From: Pelodera strongyloides | Taxonomy: Eukaryota > Nematoda > Chromadorea > Rhabditida > Rhabditidae | NCBI GenBank assembly: GCA_036852015.1 | Contig: JAANDG010000675.1 | Coordinates: 1 to 64,000 of the forward strand | Direction: 5' to 3' | Length of the DNA stretch: 64,000 nt | In this document: piece after piece, positions 7,482-64,000 of the stretch | How the letters are laid out: every line of letters begins with the position of its first letter | Position numbering within the stretch: position 1 is the stretch's first letter | The notes under the pieces: model-generated | The model's database searches: none | What the model saw: only the letters and a program-made list of their open reading frames with translations | Told to the model about the DNA's origin: nothing | Translations under genes and position numbers: made by a program

Positions 7482-7569
7482 CCACTATATGATTAAATGA
7501 AGGCAAGACCTCTCAAGGCTGGTCAGGCCAAAGTTTAGTTTGATTGCATGAACGAAAAATTGGGGTATT

Positions 7570-7642
7570 GGACGAGTGGGGGTCGAACCCACGACCTCTG
7601 GATTACCGGTCCAGTATGCTAACCACTACACTACCGCCACCC
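7570..7642 (-). repeat. tRNA-derived SINE head (Thr-like)
   Basis: Read on the minus strand it has an A box (TAGTGTAGTGGTTAGCATA) and a B box (GGTTCGACCCC). The five-base anticodon stem is perfect around a loop whose triplet GGT would be Thr, but position 33 is C rather than U. The acceptor ends do not pair. It is therefore a SINE promoter rather than a working tRNA. Confidence 0.8.
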
Positions 7643-7933
7643 ACACCCAAATTTCGTTCTTGCTAGCGACTTATACGGCTCGCCTGCAACACACAGTGGG
7701 CGCATAGCACCACAACTGCCTGGGGGGTTATAAACCACAATACCAGCTAGGTGTGCATAACCGGAAAGAATTGATTAAATGAAGGCAAGACCTCTCAAGG
7801 CTGGTCAGGCCAAAGTTTAGTTTGATTGCATGAACGAAAAATTGGGGTATTGGACGAGTGTGGGTCGAACCCACGACCCCCACTTTTTGCAGGCGAGCCG
7901 TATAAGTCGCTAGCAAGAACGAAATTTGGGTGT

Positions 7934-8007
7934 GGGTGGCGGTAGTGTAGTGGTTAGCATACTGGACCGGTAATCCAGAGGTCGTGGGTTCGACCCCCAC
8001 TCGTCCA
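7934..8007 (+). repeat. tRNA-derived SINE head, second copy
   Basis: Same sequence as the head at 7570-7642, on the opposite strand. It is followed by the SINE body CCAATACCCCAATTTTTCG and by the tail CTTGAGAGGTCTTGCCTTC ending near 8092. Confidence 0.85.
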
Positions 8008-8215
8008 ATACCCCAATTTTTCGTTCATGCAATCAAACTAAACTTTGGCCTGACCAGCCTTGAGAGGTCTTGCCTTCATTTAATCAATTCTTTCCGGTTA
8101 TGCACACCTAGCTGGTATTGTGGTTTATAACCCCCCAGGCAGTTGTGGTGCTATGCGCCCACTGTGTGTTGCAGGCGAGCCGTATAAGTCGCTAGCAAGA
8201 ACGAAATTTGGGTGT

Positions 8216-8289
8216 GGGTGGCGGTAGTGTAGTGGTTAGCATACTGGACCGGTAATCCAGAGGTCGTGGGTTCGACCCCCACTCGTCCA
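8216..8289 (+). repeat. tRNA-derived SINE head, third copy
   Basis: Identical in its A and B boxes to the copy at 7934. Its body is cut at 8324, directly before the right-hand target duplication, so this copy lacks the tail. Confidence 0.85.
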
Positions 8290-8400
8290 ATACCCCAATT
8301 TTTCGTTCATGCAATCAAACTAAACCACTATATGGCCCATGCCTACCCTAAGAGCTTGTTTCATTTTCTTCAGTATAGTTAAACAGTTTTAAGGAAGACT

Positions 8401-15800: not shown

Positions 15801-18204
15801 GAAGACTGAAGATTCCGTCGACCCAATTTATACAGGCGAAGACGTACCTGAAGAGATGGCAGAATAATAGTAAACAAAAAAGAAGAGGAATACTTACTCT
15901 CAAGATGAAAACTAATAATTGAGCTATTAGAATACCACAAGGAGAAGTCTGGGGGTCTTTTCTGCAAAAAATGTCGCGTTAGATCATTGTTTCCCATTTC
16001 GCTGCGGGGAGCATTTTAACTCCGTAACCATTGTGGCGAGCAAATGGCATCAAGTATCAGCAGAGTGAAAAGGAGTATCTCACCTCCTCATTGCCGCAAC
16101 GAGTTGTTCGACTGTGGCAACTCTTCCCATGCAGTGTGACATCTAAATCGACTTCATTTCAATTTGGGTATGCCTTTGGGCTTAAAGTCCCATCCCTCAA
16201 GCACTGTATTTATTATGGTTGCCCACCACTGAAACTGACTGAAACTATTGTGGCGAGTCCACAAGACTAATTATGCTAATGGATTTGAATGCGACGAAAC
16301 CCTGTATTTGATAAAATGGTAGAGTGTTTACCTCAAATAATTCATTCGAGTAAAGACATTTGTTGAGGAACAGTGTGCCAATATCCATATCTGGGTCCTA
16401 AAGTAGATTATCATAACTATTGTGGGTCACAGTCAGTAGTACGCAGGGATTCCATTGTCCATACTCCATACAAGATCGATGTAAATTTAATGCACCCATG
16501 TTAAATGTGTGCGCAGATTCTGTTTTCCGACTATAAATTTAAAGATTTTCCTAATAATTAATAAAAAGTGAAGCCTTATTCGTACCGGTTTAATCTGCGC
16601 AATTCCTACAGGTAAATTTGTATTGGCCGCTGAATGGCCGGCAGCTCCTCTCTGTTCGATTTCAACAAGGAAAGAGACCAACATGTCCTCATTTGATGTT
16701 CTAAATAAAGAATATAAATACGATATTAGAAAGCTGCCGCAAAAATATGACACTGAATATCCATAAAGATGTGTCATTTTTCTCTGCGGGGACACAATGG
16801 ATTTATGCACACGTAGCCTTCAATAATATCCAACCTTCTCGGCTAATATTATGTCTTAATAAATAAATAAATCTTTTACACTTCAAGAGCGTGCACCTTT
16901 ATTCAAGTCTTATTGTTAGTCAACGTGTCTCTCCCCTCAACCCTCTAGTTTCCCTCTATCTTCCTATGCTCTGCGTGTTGCACAAACATCTTGATACAAT
17001 GAATTAGCATATGTGTTAAATTGTACTCACGGACTGTCAGATCGTGGACTTGGCAGGCTTCCCTCCCTCTTTAACTTCCTCTTTCTCGGGTTTTTCTGTT
17101 TTCCAATAACATCTCGATCAGGACGAATTGCTGAAAAGACACGTTCTATTATATTTATAGGATTAATGATAATCTCATAATTCTGGCTAATTTTCGATTT
17201 AATGGAACAAAAAAGCAAGCATATCCAGAATTAGTACCAAAACATGACAGCGGCTCATTATTTATTGAAAAGGTAAAATGCAATATTTAATGACCAATTG
17301 TCTCACATAGAATTCAAAAAGTCTAATCCTTTATGAGGCCCCAAGCACAAAATGTGGATTCTAAAAATAAGCCTACTCCAAAAAATAGGACAAATTCTAA
17401 GCAAGTCTATCCTACGCCTAAGGCCAACTCCAAGGAACCATGTCAGTTTGTAATCCGAATTCAAAAATTGGGGTGTGAGTTTATTCAATAATGCCTTACC
17501 ATCTGGCTCCATCCCCATCCGAAGACAGCGTTGGAAACGACAGAAACGACACGCATTCCGCTGATCTGAAAAACGAGCACTAGAAACTAGAATTATGACT
17601 TCACAAAGTCTTCTTATTAGAAAATATAAAAAAATGCCAGCCATTCAGTGCGCGTGCTATACATTTTTACTTGTATATAATTTTGGAATACAGCACCCAA
17701 AATGTAGGGAATTTCCTCCTCTTTTCCAATGAAGTAAACATCTCATGCGTATGCAGAAATAGCACAAATAGAATGACAAATAAAGTAAAGGCATACCTTT
17801 ATCGATACTACATTTCTGTGTGTATCGACATGAATACGTCTGTCCAGAGCGGATTGTCCTCCGAAAGAAACCCTTGCACCTGGACACAAAACGATCACAA
17901 TTATTTTTCACGTATGCCCACCAAGTTTTCTAAGTGCCATATCCAAAATACGAGAACATGTCAAGATTTGCCGATTTACTCAATGCATTGTAAACATTTC
18001 TTAAACCATAAGTAGCACTAACAAGCAGCCTCTATACAAGTACTCAATGATGAAAAGCTTCGCAGGAACTATTAACAAACAATATGATATGGAGCCATGA
18101 CAAAAAAATATGTAAACAAACCCATAGCAGGCCATCACTCCATAATGTTTCCCAGCTGACCGGTCCCCACAAACCATACAGTATGACCCGTCATTGAGGT
18201 CCAT
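12865..18204 (-). CDS. HNF4-like nuclear hormone receptor, 14-17 exons
   Basis: Ligand-regulated transcription factor, nuclear. Core exons: 18204-18122, 17879-17797, 17565-17500, 17130-17031, 16700-16610, 16397-16332, 16142-16084, 15847-15775, 15637-15572, 15407-15325, 15170-15052, 14924-14840, 14731-14650, 14383-14258; phases agree and give 393 residues. The zinc fingers use Cys 9/12/26/29 and 45/51/61/64, with P-box CYGCKGFF. The GMEPDAIRPDRD hinge follows. The ligand domain runs about 140-385 with NGSVLPR, VLDELVAPMRKLQLEE, RFGNILLLLPPLA and an AF-2-like DPILVELF. If the donor GAG|GTATCA (14279) is used, phase-0 exons 13410-13375, 13362-13270 and 13092-12865 add a 118-residue Pro/Ser/Thr-rich F domain (505 residues). 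An acceptor at 18232 allows a 9-residue upstream extension or trans-splicing. The subgroup was not assigned. Confidence 0.93.
13500..14070. repeat. GC-rich GCGCGGCTGG arrays around a tRNA-like repeat
   Basis: Short degenerate units built on (T/G)GCGCGGCTGGC or CCCCTACGCGGCTGGC repeat on both sides of a tRNA-like element at 13686-13775. The stretch is far more GC-rich than its surroundings. It fills the intron between the receptor's LBD exon and its F-domain exons. Confidence 0.7.
13686..13775 (-). repeat. tRNA-Leu/Ser-like SINE head
   Basis: On the minus strand it reads ATGGCCGAGTGGTCTAAGG (A box) and later AGGTTCGATTCCTGCTC (B box) with a long middle arm, like a class II tRNA. The acceptor stem is not convincing. 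A related A-box segment lies at 37284-37312, also beside a GC-rich array. Confidence 0.6.
15658..15701. repeat. (AAT)n microsatellite
   Basis: About 14 units of TAA/AAT with one interruption, in an intron of the nuclear receptor. Confidence 0.9.
16873..16906 (+). repeat. Repeat family X, terminal fragment
   Basis: CTTCAAGAGCGTGCACCTTT and ATTCAAG match the outer end of the family X copies at 2801, 38001 and 42311, inverted. It lies in the nuclear-receptor intron between the hinge exon and the next exon. Confidence 0.6.
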
Positions 18205-25109: not shown

Positions 25110-28100
25110 CTGATCGAGAATCTGTGACGCGAACTTCACTTGAGCACTGAAGTCCATTTCCATTGTTATCTTTCAGCTACGGCGAACTTTGCACGTCGAC
25201 CTGCTTTGGACGTCATAGATTCTGAAGCAAAAGCGTGATCGAGAATCTGTCTCTTAAGCGAGCTTCATTTGAACACTGAAGTCCATTTCCATTGTTATCT
25301 TTCAGCTACGGCGAACTTTGCACGTCGACTTACTTTGGACGTCATAGATTCTGAAGCAGAAGCGGGATCGAGAATCTGTCTTTGAAGCGAGCTTCACTTG
25401 AGCACTGAAGTCCATTTCCATTGTTATCTTTCAGCTACGGCGAACTTTGCACGTTGACTTACTTTGGACGTCATAGATTCTGAAGCAGAAGCGTAATCGA
25501 GAATCTGTCTGTGACGCGAGCTTCACTTGAGCACTGAAGTCCATTTCCATTGTTATCTTTCAGCTACGGCGAACTTTGCACGTCGACTTACTTTGGACGT
25601 CATGCCTGAAGCACAAGCATGACGAGAATCTGTCTCTGACGCGAGCTTCACTTGAGCATGAAGTCCATTTCCAGTTATCTTCAGCTACGGCGAACTTTGC
25701 ACGTCGACTTACTTTGGACGTCATAGATTCTGAAGCAGAAGCGTGATCGAGAATCTGTCTCTTAAGCGAGCTTCACTTACGCACTGAAGTCCATTTCCAT
25801 TGTTATCTTTCAGGTACGGCGAACTTTGCACGTCGACTTACTTTGAACGTCATAGATCTGAAGCAGAAGCGTGATCGAGAATCTGTCTCTGAAGCGAGCT
25901 TCACTTGAAGTCCACCATTGTTAGGCGGCGAACTTTCACGTCGACTGTTTATCTTTCAGCTACGGTGACTTTGCACGTCGACTTACTTGACGTCGTAGTT
26001 TCTGAAGCAGAAGCGTGATCGACAATCTGTCTCTAAGCGAGCTTCACTTATGCACTGAAGTCCATTTCACTGTTATCTTACGGCGAACTTTGCACGTCGA
26101 CTTGTTTTTGACGTCATAGATTCTGAAGCAGAAGCGTGATCGAGAATCTGTCTCTTAAGCGAGCTTCACTTACGCACTGAAGTCCATTTCCATTGTTATC
26201 TTTCAGCTACGGCGAACTTTGCACGACGACTTAGTTTTATCTTTCAGCTACGGCGAACTTTGCACGTCGACTTACTTTGGACGTCATAGCTTCTGAAGCA
26301 CAAGCATGATCGAGAATCTGTCTCTGACGCGAGCTTCACTTGAGCACTGAAGTCCATTTCCATTGTTATCTTTCAGCTACGGCGAACTTTGCACGTCGAC
26401 TTACTTTGGACGTCATAGATTCTGAAGCAGAAGCGTGATCGAGAATCTGTCTCTTAAGCGAGCTTCACTTACGCACTGAAGTCCATTTCCATTGTTATCT
26501 TTCAGCTACGGCGAACTTTGCACGTCGACTTACTTTGGACGTCATAGATTCTGAAGCAGAAGCGTGATCGAGAATCTGTCTCTTAAGCGAGCTTCACTTA
26601 CGCACTGAAGTCCATTTCCATTGTTATCTTTCAGCTACGGCGAACTTTGCACGTCGACTTAGTTTTATCTGTCAGCTACGGCGAACTTTGCACGTCGACT
26701 TACTTTGGACGTCGTAGTTTCTGAAGCACAAGCGTGATCGAGAATCTGTCTCTTAAGCGAGCTTCACTTACGCACTGAAGTCCATTTCCATTGTTATCTT
26801 TCAGCTACGGCGAACTTTGCACGTCGACTTACTTTGGACGTCATAGATTCTGAAGCAGAAGCGTGATCGAGAATCTGTCTCTTAAGCGAGCTTCACTTAC
26901 GCACTGAAGTCCATTTCCATTGTTATCTTTCAGCTACGGCGAACTTTGCACGTCGACTTAGTTTTATCTTTCAGCTACGGCGAACTTTGCACGTCGACTT
27001 ACTTTGGACGTCGTAATTTCTGAAGCACAAGCGTGATCGAGAATCTGTCTCTGACGCGAGCTTCACTTGAGCACTGAAGTCCATTTCCATTGTTATATTT
27101 TTTTTTTGAGCTACGGTGAAATTGACGTCACAGATTCTGAAGCAGAAGCGTGAACGAGAATCTGTCTCTGAAGCTAGCTTCACTTGAGCACTGAAGTCCA
27201 TTTCCATTGTTATCTTTCAGCTACGGCGAACTTTGCACGTCGACTTACTTTGGACGTCATAGCTTCTGAAGCACAAGCGTGATCGATAATCTGTCTCTGA
27301 CGCGAGCTTCACTTGAGCACTGAAGTCCATTTCCATTGTTATCTTTCAGCTACTTCGAACTTTGCACGTCGACTTAGTTTTGACGTCATAGATTCTGAAG
27401 CAGAAGCGTGATCGAGAATCTGTCTCTGAAGCGAGCTTCACTTGAGCACTGAAGTCCATTTCCATTGTTATCTTTCAGCTACGGCGAACTTTGCACGTCG
27501 ACTTAGTTTTGACGTCACAGATTCTGAAGCAGAAACGTGATCGATAAGCTGTTTCTGACGCGAGCTTCACTTGAGCACTGAAGTCCATTTCCATTGTTAT
27601 CTTTCAGCTACGGCGAACTTTGCACGTCGAATTAGTTTTGACGTCACAGATTCTGAAGCAGAAGCATGATCGAGAATCTGTTTCTGACGCAAGCTTCACT
27701 TGAGCACTGAAGTCCATTTCCATTGTTATTTTTCAGCTACGGCGAAAATTGTACGACGACTTAGTTTTGACGTCACAGATTCTGAATCCGAAGCACAGTC
27801 GACAATTTGTCTCTGATGCGTGCTTCGCTTCAGAATTGGATTCGACTTGCATCGTACTTTTGAGCTACGGTGAAATTGACGTCACAGATTCTGAAGCAGA
27901 AGCGTGGTCGAGAATCTGTCTCTGAAGCGAGCTTCACTTGAACGCTGAAGTCCATTTCCATTGTTATCTTTCAGCTACGGCGAACTTTGCACGTCGACTT
28001 ACTTTGGACGTCATAGCTTCTGAAGCACAAGCGTGATCGAGAATCTGTCTCTGACGCGAGCTTCACTTGAGCACTGAAGTCCATTTCCATTGTTATCTTT

Positions 28101-28865
28101 CAGCTACGACGAACTTTGCACGTCGAATTAGTTTTGACGTCACAGATTCTGAAACAGAAGCATGATCGAGAATCTGTTTCTGACGCAAGCTTCACTTGAG
28201 CACTGAAGTCCATTTCCATTGTTATTTTTCAGCTACGGCGAAATTTGTACGACGACTTAGTTTTGACGTCACAGATTCTGAATCCGAGGCACAGTCGACA
28301 ATTTGTCTCTGATTCGTGCTTCGCTTCAGAATTGGATTCGACTTGCATCGTACTTTTGAGCTACGGTGAAATTGACGTCACAGATTCTGAAGCAGAAGCG
28401 TGGTCGAGAATCTGTCTCTGAAGCGAGCTTCACTTGAACGCTGAAGTCCATTTCCATTGTTATCTTTCAGCTACGGCGAACTTTGCACGTCGACTTATTT
28501 TTGGTCATAGCTTCTGACGCACAAGCGTGATCGAGAATCTGTCTCTGACGCGAGCTTCACTTGAGCACTGAAGTCCATTTCCATTGTTATCTTTCAGCTA
28601 CGACGAACTTTGCACGTCGAATTAGTTTTGACGTCACAGATTCTGAAACAGAAGCATGATCGAGAATCTGTTTCTGACGCAAGCTTCACTTGAGCACTGA
28701 AGTCCATTTCCATTGTTATTTTTCAGCTACGGCGAAATTTGTACGACGACTTAGTTTTGACGTCACAGATTCTGAATCCGAGGCACAGTCGACAATTTGT
28801 CTCTGATTCGTGCTTCGCTTCAGAATTGGATTCGACTTGCATCGTACTTTTGAGCTACGGTGAAA
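25110..28865. repeat. 3.7-kb satellite array, ~129-bp unit
   Basis: About 29 units repeat with a usual period of 129 bp (markers GATCGAGAATCTGTCTCT, GCTTCACTTGAGCACTGAAG, ATCTTTCAGCTACGGCGAAC, TTTGCACGTCGACTTACTTT). Some units carry an extra ~43-bp piece repeating ATCTTTCAGCTACGGCGAAC. From about 27100 on, larger blocks of several units repeat almost exactly (for example near 27740-28220 and 28220-28720). This indicates higher-order homogenisation. Each unit opens a 41-codon minus-strand frame that ends in TGA, so the array is not coding. Confidence 0.92.
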
Positions 28866-48236: not shown

Positions 48237-48333
48237 TTAAATTACATTTTTCGTCTCGCAGTTCAATCTCAAAATTATCTCGACCCCCATATTTCCATGC
48301 TATTCCGAGATGGGATTCCGATAAGGAACAGTT

Positions 48334-49208
48334 CAGTTAATATACCACCTCATTGTCAGTTAATATACCACCTCATTGTCAGTTAATATACCACCTCATT
48401 GTCAGTTAATATACCACCTCATTGTCAGTTAATATACCACCTCATTGTCAGTTAATATACCACCTCATTGTCAGTTATTATACCACCTCATTGTCAGTTA
48501 ATATACCACCTCATTGTCAGTTAATATACCACCTCATTGTCAGTTAATATACCACCTCATTGTCAGTTATTATACCACCTCATTGTCAGTTAATATACCA
48601 CCTCATTGTCAGTTAATATACCACCTCATTGTCAGTTAATATACCACCTCATTGTCAGTTAATATACCACCTCATTGTCAGTTAATATACCACCTCATTG
48701 TCAGTTAATATACCACCTCATTTTCAGTTAATATACCACCTCTTTGTCAGTTATTATACCACCTAATTGTCAGTTAATATACCACCTCATTGTCAGTTAA
48801 TATACCACCTCATTGTCAGTTATATACCACCTCATTGTCAGTTATTATACCACCTCATTGTCAGTTATATACCACCTCATTGTCAGTTAATATACCACCT
48901 CATTGTCAGTTAATATACCACCTCATTGTCAGTTAATATACCACCTCATTGTCAGTTATTATACCACCTCATTGTCAGTTAATATACCACCTCATTGTCA
49001 GTTATTATACCACCTCATTGTCAGTTAATATACCACCTCATTGTCAGTTAATATACCACCTCATTGTCAGTTAATATACCACCTCATTGTCAGTTAATAT
49101 ACCACCTCATTGTCAGTTATTATACCACCTCATTGTCAGTTAATATACCACCTCATTGTCAGTTAATATACCACCTCATTGTCAGTTAATATACCACCTC
49201 ATTGTCAG
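48334..49208. repeat. 23-bp minisatellite ending at a coding exon
   Basis: About 38 head-to-tail units of TTAATATACCACCTCATTGTCAG with few variants (TTATTATACC, TTATATACC). Every unit ends TTGTCAG, which matches a nematode 3' splice site (pyrimidine-rich, then CAG). The last unit's CAG is followed at once by the ATG of the gene at 49209. Confidence 0.95.
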
Positions 49209-57560: not shown

Positions 57561-57923
57561 TTAATAACCTATACTTCGGAATTGGACAACACAGATTCTA
57601 TGAAAACGCCTCCAGCTAGCGGTTTACAGTGCTCGGCTAATTGCCTTGGTTCGATGCCTTTCCGCTTACCTAACACATGCGCATTATTACCGTTTTGCTG
57701 TATTAAAGGGATAGGTTCACTAGGAATTGCATCTTTCGGTATAGCCTATGCTGGTCACAATAGGAAAATTACAGTAAACTGCCTTTGCAGTAATAACACA
57801 ACGCTCTCTACACCTCTAGCCCTGTCACACTTATTTTTTGACTATGTATTTATACGCGCAACTTTATGGTGTAAAAAATTATTATTATTATTATGCATGT
57901 AATTGGACTCACATCTCCGGGTG

Positions 57924-60682
57924 TCAAGACAACTTTCCTCCGAGCAGGGCGACATCCATGAGGAACCTAAACACTAAATAATATAAGACAGCCTTGATCA
58001 AACAGACTAATTTAGACAACATGCGATGAGCACGGCCAACTACACTTCTGTACATTTGAGAGCTCACCGCCGATCCAGTGAAGATCCCTTGTGGGCGCCC
58101 GCCACGGCGTCTTCAGTCGGCGGCGCCTACAATAACTGTCAAATAAGGTATACTTTTAGTGCAAAATATCCAAGCTACGTCTTCTAATATGGTTGAATTG
58201 GAGTTTGTTATTAAGAATTCGAAGTATAGTTATGTAATGATTATAACTCACCGCCGCTGTCAGGCGAAACTTGTTGTGTGTTGAGTATTTGGGTGCCTTG
58301 TGCGCGGCGCCCCCTCCCTCCCACCCGCACGCCGCCTCGACCTCTTGTGTTGAGTTGATCGCCCACATCTAGAAATCCAATGATAAGTTAAGTTTCATCG
58401 AAGAAACTGAAGTAAGGATCAGTAAACATAAGCCAGAAATAGTTTTTCACTCACTTCTCCAGGCGGTTCAACCTTGTGGGCGGTGCCCCCTCCCTCCCAC
58501 CCGCACGCGCCTTGACTTCTTGTGTTGAGTTGACCGCCCACATCTAGAAATCCAATGATATGTTAAGTTTCATCGAATAGAAACTGAAGTAACGATAAGT
58601 AAACGTAAACATAAGCCAGAAATAGTTTTTCACTCACTTCACCAGGCGGTTCAACCTTGTGGGCGGCGCCCCCTCCCTCCCACCCGCACGCCGCCTCGAC
58701 TTTTGTGTTGAGTTGACCGCCCACATCTAGAAATCCAATGATAAGTTAAGTTTCATCGAATAGAAACTGAAGTAAGGATCAGTAAACATGAGCCAGAAAT
58801 AGTATTTCACTCACTTCTCCAGGCGGTTCAACCTTGTGGGCGGCGCCCCCTCCCTCCCACCCACACGCCGCCTCGACCTCTTGTGTTGAGTTGATCGCCC
58901 ACATCTAGAAATCCAATGATAAGTTAAGTTTCATCGAAGAAACTGAAGTAAGGATCAGTAAACATAAGCCAGAAATAGTTTTTCACTCACTTCTCCAGGC
59001 GGTTCAACCTTGTGGGCGGCGCCCCCTCCCTCCCACCCGCACGCCGCCTCGACTTCTTGTGTCGAGTTGACCGCCCACATCTAGAAATCCAATGATAAGT
59101 TAAGTTTCATCGAATAGAAACTGAAGTAAGGATCAGTAAACGTAAACATAAGCCAGAAATAGTATTTTACTCACTTCACCAGGCGGTTCAAACTTGTGGG
59201 CGGCGCCCCCTCCCTCCCACCCGCACGCCGCCTCGACTTTTGTGTTGAGTTGACCGCCCACATCTAGAAATCCAATGATAAGTTAAGTTTCGTAAAACAG
59301 AAACTGAAGTAAGGGTCAGTAAACATAAGCCAAAAATAGTTTTTCACTCACTTCTCCGGGCGGTTCAATCTTGTGGGCGGCGCCCCCCTCCCTCCCACCC
59401 GCACGCCGCCTCGACTTTTGTGTCGAGTTGACCGCCCACATCTAGAAATCCAATGATAAGTTAAGTTTCATCGAATAGAAACTGAAGCAAGGATCAGTAC
59501 ACATAAGCCAGAAATAGTATTTCACTCACTTCTCCAGGCGGTTCAAACTTGTGGACGGCGCCCCCTCCCTCCCATCCCGCACGCCGCCTCGCTTCTTGTG
59601 TCGAGTTGACCGCCCACATCTAGAAATCCAATGATAGGTTAAAGTGAATTAGCGGTCGGTCTCAACGAAAAATACAAAAAGAGGAGGAGTAAACAACTGT
59701 GCGTTGAGCACCGTTTTTAAAGCGTTGGTTTTTGAACTTTTACTAGCCAAATTCAAAATATTTTGTCAACATTTCGTCATTTGGATGCTGCGGACTGTGT
59801 GATCATTTGAAAAGGCCATCCCTCGATTTTTCCAGGGCCGTGCTAGTATTAAAATCGGCAAATCGCTGGATTTGAATTTTCCCATACAAAATCGCAAAAA
59901 ATGGTTGTTTGAGAACATTTTTATGCAAGATGCACTTATTTGTTTGTGTTTTTATGTTTATTTTCGTTTATAACTTTTTCCAAACTATTTTTGGTGAAAA
60001 AACCCCAAACTGGGTGGTATTTCGCTTTGTTTCATGAAGTAAGGATCAGTAAACGTAAACATAAGCCAGAAATAGTATTTCACTCACTTCTCCAGACGGT
60101 TCAAACTCGTGGGCGGCGCCCCCTCCCTCCCACCCGCACGCCGCCTCGACTTCTTGTATTGAGTTGACCGCCCACATCTAGAAATCCAATGATAAGTTAA
60201 GTTTCATCGAATAGAAACTGAAGTAAGGATCAGTAAACGTAAACATAAGCCAGAAATAGTATTTCACTCACTTCTCCAGACGGTTCAAACTTGTGGGCGG
60301 CGCCCCCTCCCTCCCACCCGCGCGCCCCGCCGCCTTCTTGTGTTGAGTTGACCGCCCACATCTAGAAATCCAATGATAAGTTAAGTTTCATCGAATAGAA
60401 ACTGAAGTAAGGATCAGTAAACGTAAACATAAGCCAGAAATAGTATTTCACTCACTTCTCCAGACGGTTCAAACTTGTGGGCGGCGCCCCCTCGCTCCCA
60501 CCCGCACGCCGCCTCGGCTTCTTGCATGGCTGACTCTGCGCTGGCGTGCGGTCATTTAAGTCAAAAAGCACGCGTGCGGTCCTCCATGCGGCTGGCGTGC
60601 TTTTTTCGGACGCGGACCGACCGGTCACGCGTGCCGCCGTTTTCGCACTGACCGTGCATTTTCCAAATGCACTACTGATCAT
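57924..60682 (-). CDS. Multi-exon gene with a tandem array of ~90-nt exons
   Basis: From 5' to 3' the exons are: 60682-60456 (from ATG 60682; a second ATG at 60527 opens the other frame), then 60361-60272, 60177-60088, 59619-59530, 59441-59352, 59263-59175, 59080-58991, 58904-58815, 58726-58638, 58543-58455, the variant 58368-58252, then 58126-58068 and 57966-57924. Each repeated exon sits between TTTCTAG and GTGAGTG (one GTGAGTA), with introns of 86-94 nt except one of 468 nt. Frame A repeats MWAVNSTQEVEAACGWEGGG. Frame B, entered from ATG 60682, repeats CGRSTQHKKSRRRAGGREG and meets TGA in each 89-nt copy (59263, 58726, 58543). Frame A with all exons stops in the 58726 copy. Alternative splicing would be needed for a long product. 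The family was not recognised. Confidence 0.6.
58068..60527 (-). repeat. Exon-intron tandem repeat, ~180-bp unit
   Basis: Eleven units, counting the partial first and variant last, each hold an exon (GC-rich, GGGTGGGAGGGAGGGGGCGCC) and an intron (AT-rich, ATTTCTGGCTTATGTTTACT). Introns are conserved nearly as well as exons, so the whole unit duplicated. A unique 390-bp piece (about 59641-60034) interrupts one intron. Confidence 0.92.
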
Positions 60683-60851
60683 AGTTGAATGAAACTTCAA
60701 ATTTTTTTTTACAGCGCTTAATTTTTGTATTGTTACTTATATTGTGTCTGGTTTGTAGTTATTTGTGCGTATGTATTTTTGTTAATAAAAAGAGGAACAT
60801 ACATAGAAATGCTTAAACAGGTGAAATGAATGCGTAGTGTGGTCAGCTGGA
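60683..60851. promoter_or_regulatory. Divergent promoter region
   Basis: Only 169 bp separate the frame-B ATG of the minus-strand array gene (60682) and the ATG of the plus-strand gene (60852). The stretch contains a T run (60702-60711) and TTGTTAATAAAAAGAGG. No TATA box was assigned. A shared bidirectional promoter is inferred from spacing alone. Confidence 0.4.
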
Positions 60852-63800
60852 ATGAAAAGATTTTTGGATCAGGCAGGCGACGAAACCTACAACCCCAAAA
60901 CTTTGAAAGGTAAGTATATTGAAATATTTTTCTCTAAGACATGGTTAATAACACTCGTTTCAGTAACCCTTCTGTGATAGAGCAACAATTAACGTTAAAA
61001 ATCGTGTTGATATTGAGGTGCTGCAGAATGATTAGGAATAAACTGTTGAACGCCTACACTAACGTGTAGAACCTTATAATGATTTATTTATAACATATAT
61101 GAATGCTGTATTCGGCGTACACCCTTAACACATTTGTTCATTTCCTGTTCATCATTTTATCAGATTGTATGCTATTTTCCCAACATTTTGCAACAAGAGA
61201 TTAGTCTGTGGGATATTATTTTTAAAGATAATAATGGTTAGTATGGGAATTGAAAAGTTATTGTTGATGCATTTTTATAGGCTTACAAACGTTATTGCAG
61301 AGCTCCTTAGCGTAAGAAAGCCAGTTAATAGTGATGTTGCTTGCCGAAACAAAAATGACGGTTCTGCGTCAACATTTCATGGAGGTTCTGGTGAGCAGTC
61401 ATTTTATTAAACAGAAACGAATGGTGGGTGTATCGCCAATGAATGTAGTTGCGATTTAGCTTTTTTGATCTATTTTGTATTTGTTTGTAATGTATCGAAT
61501 AGTATTGACAAGTTTAGGGTTCCCACTATCCAATACAAGTCAAAGTGGTGTATGTTCTGCGGCAACATTTCATGGAGGTTCTGGTGAGCAGTTAGTCGAA
61601 ATTTGGTATTATGAAGACATTAAAATTTATATTAAATATACACGTTTCGTTGTTAGAAAGGCGATAGGCCCAAGCCGTTTTTTTCACGTTATGTATTTTA
61701 CGGCTAAGGGCTGTTTAGTTTATGGAAGTATATAAAATGTAAATTGGACCGAAATAACTAAAAAGGTATCACGGAGATGAAATTAATTATATTGCTCCTA
61801 GGGATGATTAGGCACATCTGCAAATGATTCGTGTATGCGCTTTCCGCGCAATTTATAATGGTATTTTAGACAATTACGCGGATTTCGAAGAAAACGGGTG
61901 TGATACACAGGAAGAAAATCGTTCAGTGCGCGGTAAGAGAAAGAGTATTCACTACGAATATTAAGGAAATTAGGAAATATTGTGTGCTCTGTGTAATTAA
62001 TGGAGTTGGTTGCGATATTGAGGGGGTATTGGGATGTGTAGCTCTAAATGGGTGAAAACCACAGAGCGCACCAGAAACATCTGCTTCTAAATAAAGGCAG
62101 TTAGATAGTTAGGACAGGTCAGTTAGAAGCGGCCTTGAACATGTAAGAGACGCTGGTGCAAATTAAAGTACCTTATTGTTGTACTTATGCTGTAAAAATG
62201 ATAATATCACTGTAAAAATAAGTTCATGTTATTTAGAAGTGGCACCCTCCCTATCAAGACTTTTGCAAGAACTGGAGCCGCAAGCAAAAAGTCCGTGGTC
62301 AGCATTCGACAGTCTTTCTGACGACTTAATTTTGTTCACAATTAAGGTATGTTATTTTGGTGGCATGAGATTTCAAAGATTATATTGTGATTATGTTATG
62401 GGATAAAATAACTGCGGTGTTGTATAAAACAGTAACGTCACTGTGCGGGGTTGTATTAAACAGTAACCTCACGCACTACTACCTATATGCATTTTAGTGT
62501 CTACAGTTCGGGTGGAGCAAGAGACAAATAGAAGAGATTATAGAAATATCAGCGCTTGTCAGGAAGGGAAATCAGAAGATTTTCGCAAGCGATGTGTTTA
62601 GATTAAAGGAAGACCTAGGAAAGGTATGTGTTGAATAACTTCTTTGGATTAATTTTTTTTTACGGATTGTTCGATGGCGTAACTTAAATAGATGGAACAA
62701 AACTGTCGTGTTTCTTAGAAGGGTTTCCTTGTTCCTGTTCTAAATAGTCTTTGTTTGACAGGGTTGTGGTATCGAACAATCTATATATTGTGGAGACTGT
62801 CACTGGAAGCTTTGTAGTGATCGTTCACCATGTATCAACAAGGACTGTTCATCTCGAGGGTTAGTTATTAGCTGCTGACATTATTTAGGGGACAGTGATG
62901 TACCCTAGAAATTCAAAGAAATACAAGAAAAAACATGAACTTGAGCCAAACCTAAACCTTGTATCATAAAAATATATTGCATACTTTAAGTGAAACATTT
63001 AGGTCAGCAAAATTACGAGACGGTGCAATAAGGAATATTGAAATTCACATGCCTGATTTGGAAGCATACGTGAAGGAAGTTCTGCAGAACAATATAGAGG
63101 TAATTTATGTTTCGATTACTGTATCTATTTATGTTTTGTTTATTTGTTGCTTTCTGCTTTGTCTAATGAGTTGGCGAGCATTTTGCGTTTCATGGTTAGC
63201 TGGTTAGCTCGTAGACTAATTTTTTTAGGATGTTCTATCCACACATGAACAATTGCACATGGGAGAGTGTGGTTTGGCGGATGTTTCCTCTTCGGCGTTT
63301 GCACAAGGCCAAGTGGAAACATGGGAAATGTTCCAGCGACGGCATTTGGTAATTCCGATACTGCTAAATACGGATGGAGGAAATTTACCCGGCAACTCAA
63401 GGTTTATATCTATTTAGATATATTTCATTCATATTTCTCGTTTTTAAAGTTATTATTACCAGTAACCGTACCTATTTAAGCTGTAAGCTGTAACTAGTTT
63501 GTTACTTATTCGTTCAGTTTCGTTCATTTTGGTCTAGTGCTCAGTTTCGATAGTTCTATTGCACGTTTTCAATAAGATGTTGTGATTGTGATTGTGATAA
63601 GATCGTTGCTATGTTGTGATTCACTTTAGGTCGGGTTCGGGTATAGTACCGCCGAAGAAACGTGCACCCACACCTCATCCGTCCGGGCAGTTTTCTCAAA
63701 ATGGTATCTTAGATCTTTCATAGGCTTCTTTTATGGCTTGTTATGGAACAACCTAAATTATATGTGCTAGGGTTCCGCTCAGCTGGAAGAACTAGAGTGT

Positions 63801-63930
63801 TTTCTTTCCAGCGTCTGCTAATCCTACTCAACACAGTCAAACCGAGGAAATGACAGCAAATTGTGAACTGGGAAAACATCTAGTTCGGATTTCTCTCGCG
63901 CGAAACCTGACTTCCGAAGAAGAAATACTG
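60852..63930 (+). CDS. Multi-exon gene, 5' part, unknown function
   Basis: Eleven exons fit in phase: 60852-60909, 61301-61390, 61518-61583, 61870-61932, 62237-62346, 62498-62623, 62762-62859, 63003-63099, 63229-63401, 63630-63703 and 63812-63930, which makes 358 codons and continues past the window. Donors are GT(A/G)AGT-like and acceptors end TTTAG or CAG. Residues 1-19 are MKRFLDQAGDETYNPKTLK. Exons 2 and 3 end with copies of (S/A)TFHGGSG. A leucine-rich segment (SLSRLLQELEPQ, SDDLILFTIK) and a basic segment follow. A Cys cluster (CGIEQSIYCGDCHWKLC, then CINKDC) looks like a zinc-binding site. IPILLNTDGG near the exon 9 end faintly recalls the first Asp motif of some TNP2-like transposases. 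That link is weak; it could be a domesticated transposon protein or something unrelated. Confidence 0.72.
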
Positions 63931-63981
63931 GTAAATTGGTTCTTCTGCAGATTCACTTCATCAGTAATTTATCTATTTTAA

Positions 63982-64000
63982 AGCGAAATGCCAGCTCCTT
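63982..64000. mobile_element. TTAA foldback MITE, family A, cut by window end
   Basis: After TTAA (63978-63981) the sequence AGCGAAATGCCAGCTCCTT repeats the start of the element at 11418-11580. It lies in the intron after exon 11 of the plus-strand gene. Confidence 0.75.

What the first reader, a model, noticed from the sequence alone, without database searches (positions are those of the whole stretch)
58252..60527. Tandem array of intact ~90-nt exons with their introns
Seen directly: the minus strand carries about ten consecutive copies of one exon, and every copy keeps the TTTCTAG acceptor and a GTGAGT(G/A) donor. Six of the nine standard copies are exactly 90 nt and the variant last copy is 117 nt. 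Such an array can make proteins with different numbers of a 30-residue repeat by exon skipping. The repeat matched no domain I recognise, so it may be a new variable-repeat gene.
Basis: seen in the sequence. Interest (0 to 1): 0.9.

Follow-up and report, generated by a model that had tools for sequence, protein, structure and literature searches.

The report
Nematode array of G-quadruplex RNA exons
In a roundworm genome, about a dozen near-identical units, most with intact splice signals and a sequence predicted to fold into a G-quadruplex, sit side by side; they likely form exons of a spliced non-coding RNA rather than of a repeat protein, but no transcript has been seen.

Summary
Minus strand 60,361-58,252 carries ten complete 89-90-nt (last: 117-nt) exon-like segments, all with TTTCTAG acceptor and GTGAGT donor, plus a donor-only first copy. 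The array is larger: copies lie at C675:67.2 and 70.3 kb, diverged kin at 71.9-72.3 kb, and two transposons split a once continuous array. Searches found the unit nowhere else in the 160-Mb nematode assembly. The protein reading is weak: three of nine standard copies are 89 nt, no frame is open through all ten, 69 of 511 exon subsets are open, dN/dS is ~0.9 in young and old copies, exons diverge as fast as introns, no homologue was found. Minus-strand splice signals are better kept than other sites (p 0.04). Upstream lie further frame-less exon-like units. Nine of ten complete exons carry GGGTGGGAGGGAGGGG, found 11 times in the assembly, all in this array. Best reading: a fast-evolving spliced non-coding RNA locus with an amplified G-quadruplex exon. 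Main rival: a decaying local repeat; a dispersed satellite on the same contig shows exon-like signals too. RNA evidence is missing.

The parts
60455..60524 (-). Truncated first copy in the window: 3' part of an exon with donor; its 5' part lies at C675:67001-66981 beyond an inserted transposon
   Evidence: the unit resumes here at position 22; the other flank at C675:66981 ends at position 23
60272..60361 (-). exon-like copy, 90 nt, acceptor TTTCTAG, donor GTGAGT
60088..60177 (-). exon-like copy, 90 nt; its following intron is interrupted
59643..60034 (.). about 390 bp of unrelated sequence inside the intron of the 60177 copy
   Evidence: array alignment stops at 60035 and resumes at 59642
59530..59619 (-). 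exon-like copy, 90 nt, -1 and +1 indels relative to consensus
59352..59441 (-). exon-like copy, 90 nt, -1 and +1 indels
59175..59263 (-). exon-like copy, 89 nt
58991..59080 (-). exon-like copy, 90 nt
58815..58904 (-). exon-like copy, 90 nt
58638..58726 (-). exon-like copy, 89 nt
58455..58543 (-). exon-like copy, 89 nt
58252..58368 (-). last exon-like copy, 117 nt, 3' part replaced by other sequence
58068..58126 (-). possible next exon (59 nt, acceptor ATTGTAG, donor GTGAGC) holding a GGGCGCCCACAAGG stretch like the array unit
   Evidence: consensus match only
57913..57966 (-). possible further exon (54 nt, acceptor TGTTTAG, donor GTGAGT)
   Evidence: consensus match only
60525..64000 (.). window part of a ~6.46-kb inverted-repeat transposon (about C675:60525-66981) inserted in an exon copy; both ends are multi-copy; inside is a plus-strand spliced-gene candidate

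Best explanation
Ten complete and three broken or chimeric copies of one exon-like segment, each complete copy with an intact acceptor and donor on the minus strand, form a single-locus array that is likely the amplified exon of a spliced non-coding RNA, not of a protein. Shown: the copies, the intact minus-strand splice signals, loss of frame, no match found elsewhere in the assembly, a four-run G motif in 12 of 13 copies, and older related exon-like units upstream. Inferred: that the strand is transcribed and the sites are used; that unequal crossing-over amplified a 178-bp exon+intron unit (the last three units repeat the previous three at ~537-bp spacing); and that the mature RNA would carry a variable number of G-rich modules, set by splicing and by array length, which would act as a repeated protein-binding or retention module much as exon repeats do in the mammalian lncRNA Firre.
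For: Minus-strand splice positions: 1 change in 149 sites against 67 in 1961 other sites, one-sided Fisher p 0.04 (13 array rows, 11 acceptors and 12 donors; copies are related, so p is optimistic). In the nine copies, minus acceptor and donor are intact in 9 of 9; of the best plus-strand alternatives, the acceptor AG is lost in 1 of 9 and the donor GT in 1 of 9, with a weakened donor in one more and one cut off by the insertion. Old kin at ~72% identity keep valid but different signals (TATTCAG, TATTTAG against TTTCTAG; GTAAGT against GTGAGT) while exon and intron have drifted. In the upstream A/B units, 8 of 8 core AG/GT columns are invariant in four copies against 166 of 273 gapless columns. 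Exon-like pairs on the minus strand: 13 and 9 per 2.5 kb at C675:70-75 kb, against 0-4 in all other bins of either strand except 6 in the array and 11 in a satellite (recalled splice weights, pairs not independent). No frame. Single locus. Motif GGGTGGGAGGGAGGGG: 11 in the assembly, all in the array; 14 of 16 four-run G motifs of the 75-kb contig are in the array or its kin, all 14 on the minus strand.
Against: No transcript evidence of any kind. Exons are no better conserved than introns in the array or, for exon A, in the A/B units, so no constraint on the RNA sequence itself is seen. Two transposons, about 3.0 and 6.5 kb, sit inside exon copies, which a transcript of the whole array must splice across. 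A 129-bp array on the same contig has 13 exon-like pairs in about 28 units yet is a dispersed satellite, so such signals alone prove little. The A/B splice sites were picked because they look like splice sites. Of 12 exons folded, 11 have z above -2. Other AG dinucleotides of the A/B set are often kept too (8 of 15-18).
Confidence: 0.48

Rival explanations
1. A non-functional local tandem repeat: a fragment of a dead or dying spliced gene was amplified by unequal crossing-over, and the splice signals are fossils that are too young to have decayed.
For: Exon and intron diverge alike, 3.6% and 3.1% off consensus; exons broken by transposons; frameshifts; a dispersed satellite on the same contig also shows exon-like pairs.
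Against: Splice positions changed less than the rest; minus sites kept in 9 of 9 copies while some plus-strand alternatives are lost; valid variants of the sites persist in kin at ~72% identity; the unit was not found elsewhere.
Confidence: 0.32
2. A variable-repeat protein gene: exons of 30 codons, used in varying number by exon skipping.
For: Six of nine standard copies are 90 nt, two of them through offset indels that restore length; both complete older kin exons are 87 nt; a 293-codon path exists if the 89-nt copies are skipped, running through the last exon.
Against: No frame through all ten, 69 of 511 subsets open; dN/dS ~0.93 among copies and 0.86-1.17 against and among the older kin in the matching register; one of the two kin exons has a stop in that register; exon not more conserved than intron; no homologue or domain above cut-off. 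The 293-codon path compares with 48-253 codons in 24 other stretches and 469 for the gene candidate inside the transposon.
Confidence: 0.15
3. A host for intronic small RNAs: the exons are by-products and the repeated intron carries a snoRNA or a mirtron.
For: Tandem non-coding exon+intron units are the layout of snoRNA host clusters (recalled, no call).
Against: No Rfam match at E up to 1 in window 57,800-60,700 or in L010; seven array introns fold about as well as shuffles, z from +0.03 to -1.67, with no end-to-end hairpin.
Confidence: 0.05

Closest known systems
Firre lncRNA and its repeating RNA domain (RRD), PMC4820808
   Same: A repeat largely confined to one locus and lying in many exons of one gene (RRD in 7 of 13 human and 11 of 23 mouse exons, per passages read), in a non-coding RNA locus, with fast divergence.
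   Different: Firre is transcribed and RRD is a tested nuclear-retention signal; here no transcript is known, the host is a nematode, the unit is a head-to-tail 178-bp exon+intron with a G-rich run, and no sequence relation was tested or is claimed.
Tandemly duplicated coding exons (repeat-protein genes; recalled)
   Same: Exon+intron unit amplified in tandem, mostly 90 nt.
   Different: Frame not kept in three of nine copies, no purifying selection on the peptide seen.
snoRNA host gene clusters such as SNORD115/116 (recalled)
   Same: Tandem non-coding exon+intron units.
   Different: No Rfam small RNA found in the array or upstream.
Satellite DNA (such as the 129-bp satellite at 25.1-28.8 kb)
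   Same: Head-to-tail units, similar among neighbours.
   Different: The satellite is on many contigs; the array unit was found only on C675.

Membership tests
Long non-coding RNA gene | Transcribed, more than 200 nt | not testable with these tools
   no RNA data available here
Long non-coding RNA gene | No conserved reading frame | tested here: met
   a 293-codon path by skipping exons remains possible
Long non-coding RNA gene | Splice signals kept by selection | tested here: inconclusive
   1/149 against 67/1961, p 0.04; strand contrast; control satellite shows such signals too
Firre-type local-repeat lncRNA | Repeat found many times in one locus and rarely elsewhere | tested here: met
Firre-type local-repeat lncRNA | Repeat lies in exons of the mature RNA and retains it in the nucleus | not testable with these tools
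   exon status rests on splice signals only
Variable-repeat protein gene with exon array | Frame preserved across copies | tested here: not met
   3 of 9 standard copies 89 nt; no frame open through all ten
Variable-repeat protein gene with exon array | Purifying selection on the peptide | tested here: not met
   dN/dS ~0.93 on 13 changes in 5 of 13 copies; 0.86-1.17 with older kin, 9-19 changes per pair; exon divergence not below intron
Variable-repeat protein gene with exon array | Homologous protein or domain | tested here: not met
   two sub-cut-off Pfam matches at E 0.028 and 0.066 not counted
Dispersed satellite | Unit present at other loci | tested here: not met
snoRNA or mirtron host | Intron carries a recognisable small RNA | tested here: not met

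The most novel reading that the evidence does not exclude
A nematode-lineage non-coding RNA whose dose of G-quadruplex modules is set twice: in the genome by unequal crossing-over of a 178-bp exon+intron unit, and in each transcript by how many of the dozen interchangeable exons are spliced in; it would be the only carrier of this exact G-rich motif in the assembly and an invertebrate counterpart, by independent origin, of exon-repeat lncRNAs such as Firre.
Probability: 0.2. Interest if true: 0.7.

Novelty: new variant of a known kind. Interest (0 to 1): 0.4.

Why it matters
If transcribed, the locus shows how an RNA can gain a repeated module by exon amplification without a protein frame, and it offers a natural series (a dozen near-identical exons with nearly identical sites) for studying exon choice. 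The concentration of one G-quadruplex-type motif at a single place in 160 Mb makes function of that motif directly testable by deleting one locus. It also gives a caution: splice-like signals in a tandem array are not proof of exons, since a dispersed satellite on the same contig shows them too.

Tried and rejected
Protein homology of the joined array peptide (924 candidates, none at E<=1) and of a hand-joined product of the plus-strand gene candidate inside the transposon (1103 candidates, none at E<=0.001; one PDB match at E 0.21, not meaningful). Pfam on six peptides: only the nuclear-receptor fragment passed its cut-off. Mirtron idea: seven introns do not fold as end-to-end hairpins. Rfam: nothing at E up to 1 in 57,800-60,700 or L010. 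A 9-bp stem joining TGTGGGCGG and CCGCCCACA in the exon was considered; it is broken in some copies (GGGCGATC in 58904 and 58368, CCGCGCACA in 58368), and folding z is -2.5 in one of five array exons and -0.9 to 0 in the other four, so no conserved fold is claimed. A compensatory hairpin between two upstream exons (C675:74.4 and 70.7 kb: CTTCCAC..GTGGAAG and TTCCGCA..TGCGGAA, both in the folds) was noted, but two sequences are too few. Plus-strand splicing: alternative sites exist but are lost or weakened in some copies. Papers: eight searches listed no description of a non-coding tandem exon array in a nematode; this covers only the open library, these terms, and the rows shown (10 of 1,658). 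Of the papers, only passages of PMC4820808 were read; the rest were seen as search listings.

Limits: species not named by any search. Nematode is inferred from the SL1 leader (recognised by recall) in tandem loci, with a 5S-like sequence (also by recall) nearby; the SL1 matches, 40-48 bits, were below Rfam's cut-off of 75. No relatives' genomes were available, so conservation across species could not be tested. Contig C675 ends at 75,061, so the 5' end of the locus may be missing. Genome searches skip very common words and score a limited number of candidates (all 5 and all 3; 40 of 2008).

Full report
Setting. The window is bases 1-64,000 of contig C675 (75,061 bp) in an assembly of 159.9 Mb and 1,171 contigs. 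The organism is a nematode by inference: loci of the same assembly carry the 22-nt SL1 leader with a 5S-like sequence nearby, both recognised by recall (SL1 model scores 40-48 bits, below the Rfam cut-off of 75). The window also holds a fragment of a C4 zinc-finger nuclear receptor.

The observation. One search lists ten complete copies on the minus strand with lengths 90, 90, 90, 90, 89, 90, 90, 89, 89 and 117 nt. All ten have TTTCTAG in front and GTGAGT behind. An eleventh, at the 5' end (60524-60455), has only its 3' part. TRF reports the main block as a 178-bp repeat with 91% matches. The last three units repeat the previous three at a spacing of about 537 bp (59263/58726, 59080/58543, 58904/58368; coordinates), which fits duplication of a three-unit block by unequal crossing-over (inference).

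The array is bigger than the window shows. Searching the assembly with the unit found 15 matches, all on C675: besides the window copies, C675:67176-66981, 70298-70144 and a 72%-identical match at 72,119-71,942. A pattern search allowing three mismatches found 36 matches: 12 with 0-1 mismatch, all on C675, and 24 with three mismatches elsewhere, 16 of them one recurring word; the reversed control pattern gave 3. A 2.15-kb upstream query also matched only C675. Self-alignment shows that the unit breaks off at position 3 at C675:70144 and resumes at position 2 at 67179, and breaks off at position 23 at 66981 and resumes at position 22 at 60524. So the array was continuous, and two insertions with 2-bp target duplications (TG and CA; read) split it. 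The first insert (about 67,180-70,143) has many relatives, one 97% identical on C545. The second (about 60,525-66,981) has multi-copy ends that face each other as 79% identical inverted repeats. On six other contigs (C38, C45, C418, C793, C815, C1015) matches to the two ends span about 1.75-2.3 kb, on C370 about 5.3 kb, and here 6.5 kb. Its interior holds a plus-strand gene candidate; no second copy of that part was seen, but only 40 of 2008 candidates were scored.

Is it coding? Joined in order, the ten exons are open in none of three frames. Of the 511 subsets that keep order, hold at least one of the first nine and end in the last exon, 63 are open in frame 0, 6 in frame 2 and none in frame 1; 69 in any frame. 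In five indel-free copies, 13 distinct changes give 10 nonsynonymous and 3 synonymous in frame 0, dN/dS about 0.93, with codon positions hit 5, 4, 4. Exon sites differ from consensus at 40 of 1100, intron sites at 27 of 861. The two complete older kin exons are 87 nt each; against the array they have a 1-nt and a 2-nt gap, so net length stays divisible by three while the register shifts in between. In the 61-nt gap-free core, read in the register of array frame 0, dN/dS is 1.17 between the two kin and 0.88 and 0.86 against the array (9, 19 and 15 changes), and one kin has a stop in that register. No homologue was found. A simple path search gives 293 codons through the array by leaving out the 89-nt copies, and 277 upstream, against 48-253 in 24 other 4.9-kb stretches and 469 for the gene candidate in the transposon. 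The protein reading is therefore weak but not closed.

Is it spliced? Four facts favour it. First, the 13 splice positions show 1 change in 149 sites (TTTCTAG to TTTATAG in the 70-kb copy) against 67 in 1961 elsewhere, p 0.04 (13 rows, the 20-nt fragment at 67,001 left out, and the acceptor of 59619 and the donor of the last copy, both intact, not in the count). Second, the strand contrast: for nine copies, minus sites are intact in all, while the best plus-strand acceptor loses its AG in one copy, the donor its GT in one, a donor is weakened in another and one is cut off by the insert. Third, kin at ~72% identity keep valid but different sites: TATTCAG and TATTTAG for TTTCTAG, GTAAGT for GTGAGT. 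Fourth, the 5 kb upstream are dense in minus-strand exon-like pairs (13 and 9 per 2.5 kb, with splice weights that I set from recall and pairs that overlap and include tandem copies), among them an older tandem A/B set of four copies in which all eight core AG/GT columns are invariant against 166 of 273 gapless columns, while exons of 80-92 nt differ by indels that do not respect a frame and stops close all frames in three of four joined copies.

What speaks against. A 129-bp array at 25.1-28.8 kb shows 13 TTCAG...GTAAGT pairs (11 of them 71 nt apart) in about 28 units and yet is a satellite with at least 381 matches on many contigs. So exon-like signals in an array can be chance, and conservation over ~5% divergence is weak evidence. 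The A/B sites were chosen because they look like sites, and other AG dinucleotides there are kept in 8 of 15-18 cases (other GT: 4 of 17-18). Exons are not more conserved than introns in the array or for exon A. Transposons sit in two exon copies.

The G-rich core. All ten complete exons hold a four-run G motif; nine hold exactly GGGTGGGAGGGAGGGG, and 59619 has GGGATGGGAGGGAGGGGG. With the 67- and 70-kb copies, 12 of 13 array copies have one; the copy at 60524 does not (GAGCGAGG). On the contig, 14 of 16 such motifs lie in the array or its kin, all 14 on the minus strand. In the whole assembly the 16-mer occurs 11 times, all in this array. That such runs fold into a stable parallel G-quadruplex is established knowledge (recalled), not tested here.

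Mechanism. I commit to a spliced non-coding RNA locus in which one exon+intron unit with a G-quadruplex-type core was amplified by unequal crossing-over. The transcript would carry a variable number of the module, by exon choice and by array length, and the module would serve as a repeated binding or retention site. Copies, sites, frame loss and locus specificity are shown; transcription, use of the sites, folding and function are inferred. The closest known design is Firre, where a local repeat lies in 7 of 13 human exons and acts as a nuclear-retention signal (PMC4820808, passages). This works like that at most; membership is not claimed.

Verdict. Observation confirmed, protein interpretation unlikely (0.15), non-coding exon array the best reading at 0.48, decayed local repeat at 0.32, small-RNA host at 0.05.

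Noticed in passing
window 25121-28865: 129-bp tandem satellite, dispersed on many contigs (at least 381 matches), with 13 TTCAG...GTAAGT pairs on the minus strand in about 28 units, 11 of them 71 nt apart.
   Followed up: yes
C675:60525-66981 (window 60525-64000 and L009): Inverted-repeat transposon ~6.46 kb long, while matches to its two ends span 1.75-2.3 kb on six other contigs; inside is a plus-strand multi-exon gene candidate (469-codon path) with no second copy among the candidates scored, a possible gene capture.
   Followed up: partly
C675:67180-70143 (L009/L010): Transposon of about 3.0 kb with ends CTCTGTTCCT / CTATGTTCCT and many relatives, one 97% identical on C545; inserted 3 nt into an array exon.
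   Followed up: partly
C675:70700-72900 (L010): Older tandem set of paired exon-like units (A and B), exons 61-95% identical between copies, found only here, no shared frame.
   Followed up: partly
window 63977-64000 into L009 (C675:63977-64149): 173-bp near-perfect palindrome (94%), matched at 94-98% identity on some 30 other contigs, a probable miniature element.
   Followed up: no
window 48333-49208: 38 copies of a 23-bp minisatellite, 97% match.
   Followed up: no
window 17303-17644, minus: Fragment of a C4 zinc-finger nuclear receptor (Pfam zf-C4, E 3e-05).
   Followed up: no
window 7568-8290: Three tRNA matches with identical score (48 bits) within 0.7 kb, one inverted, likely a recent local duplication.
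   Followed up: no
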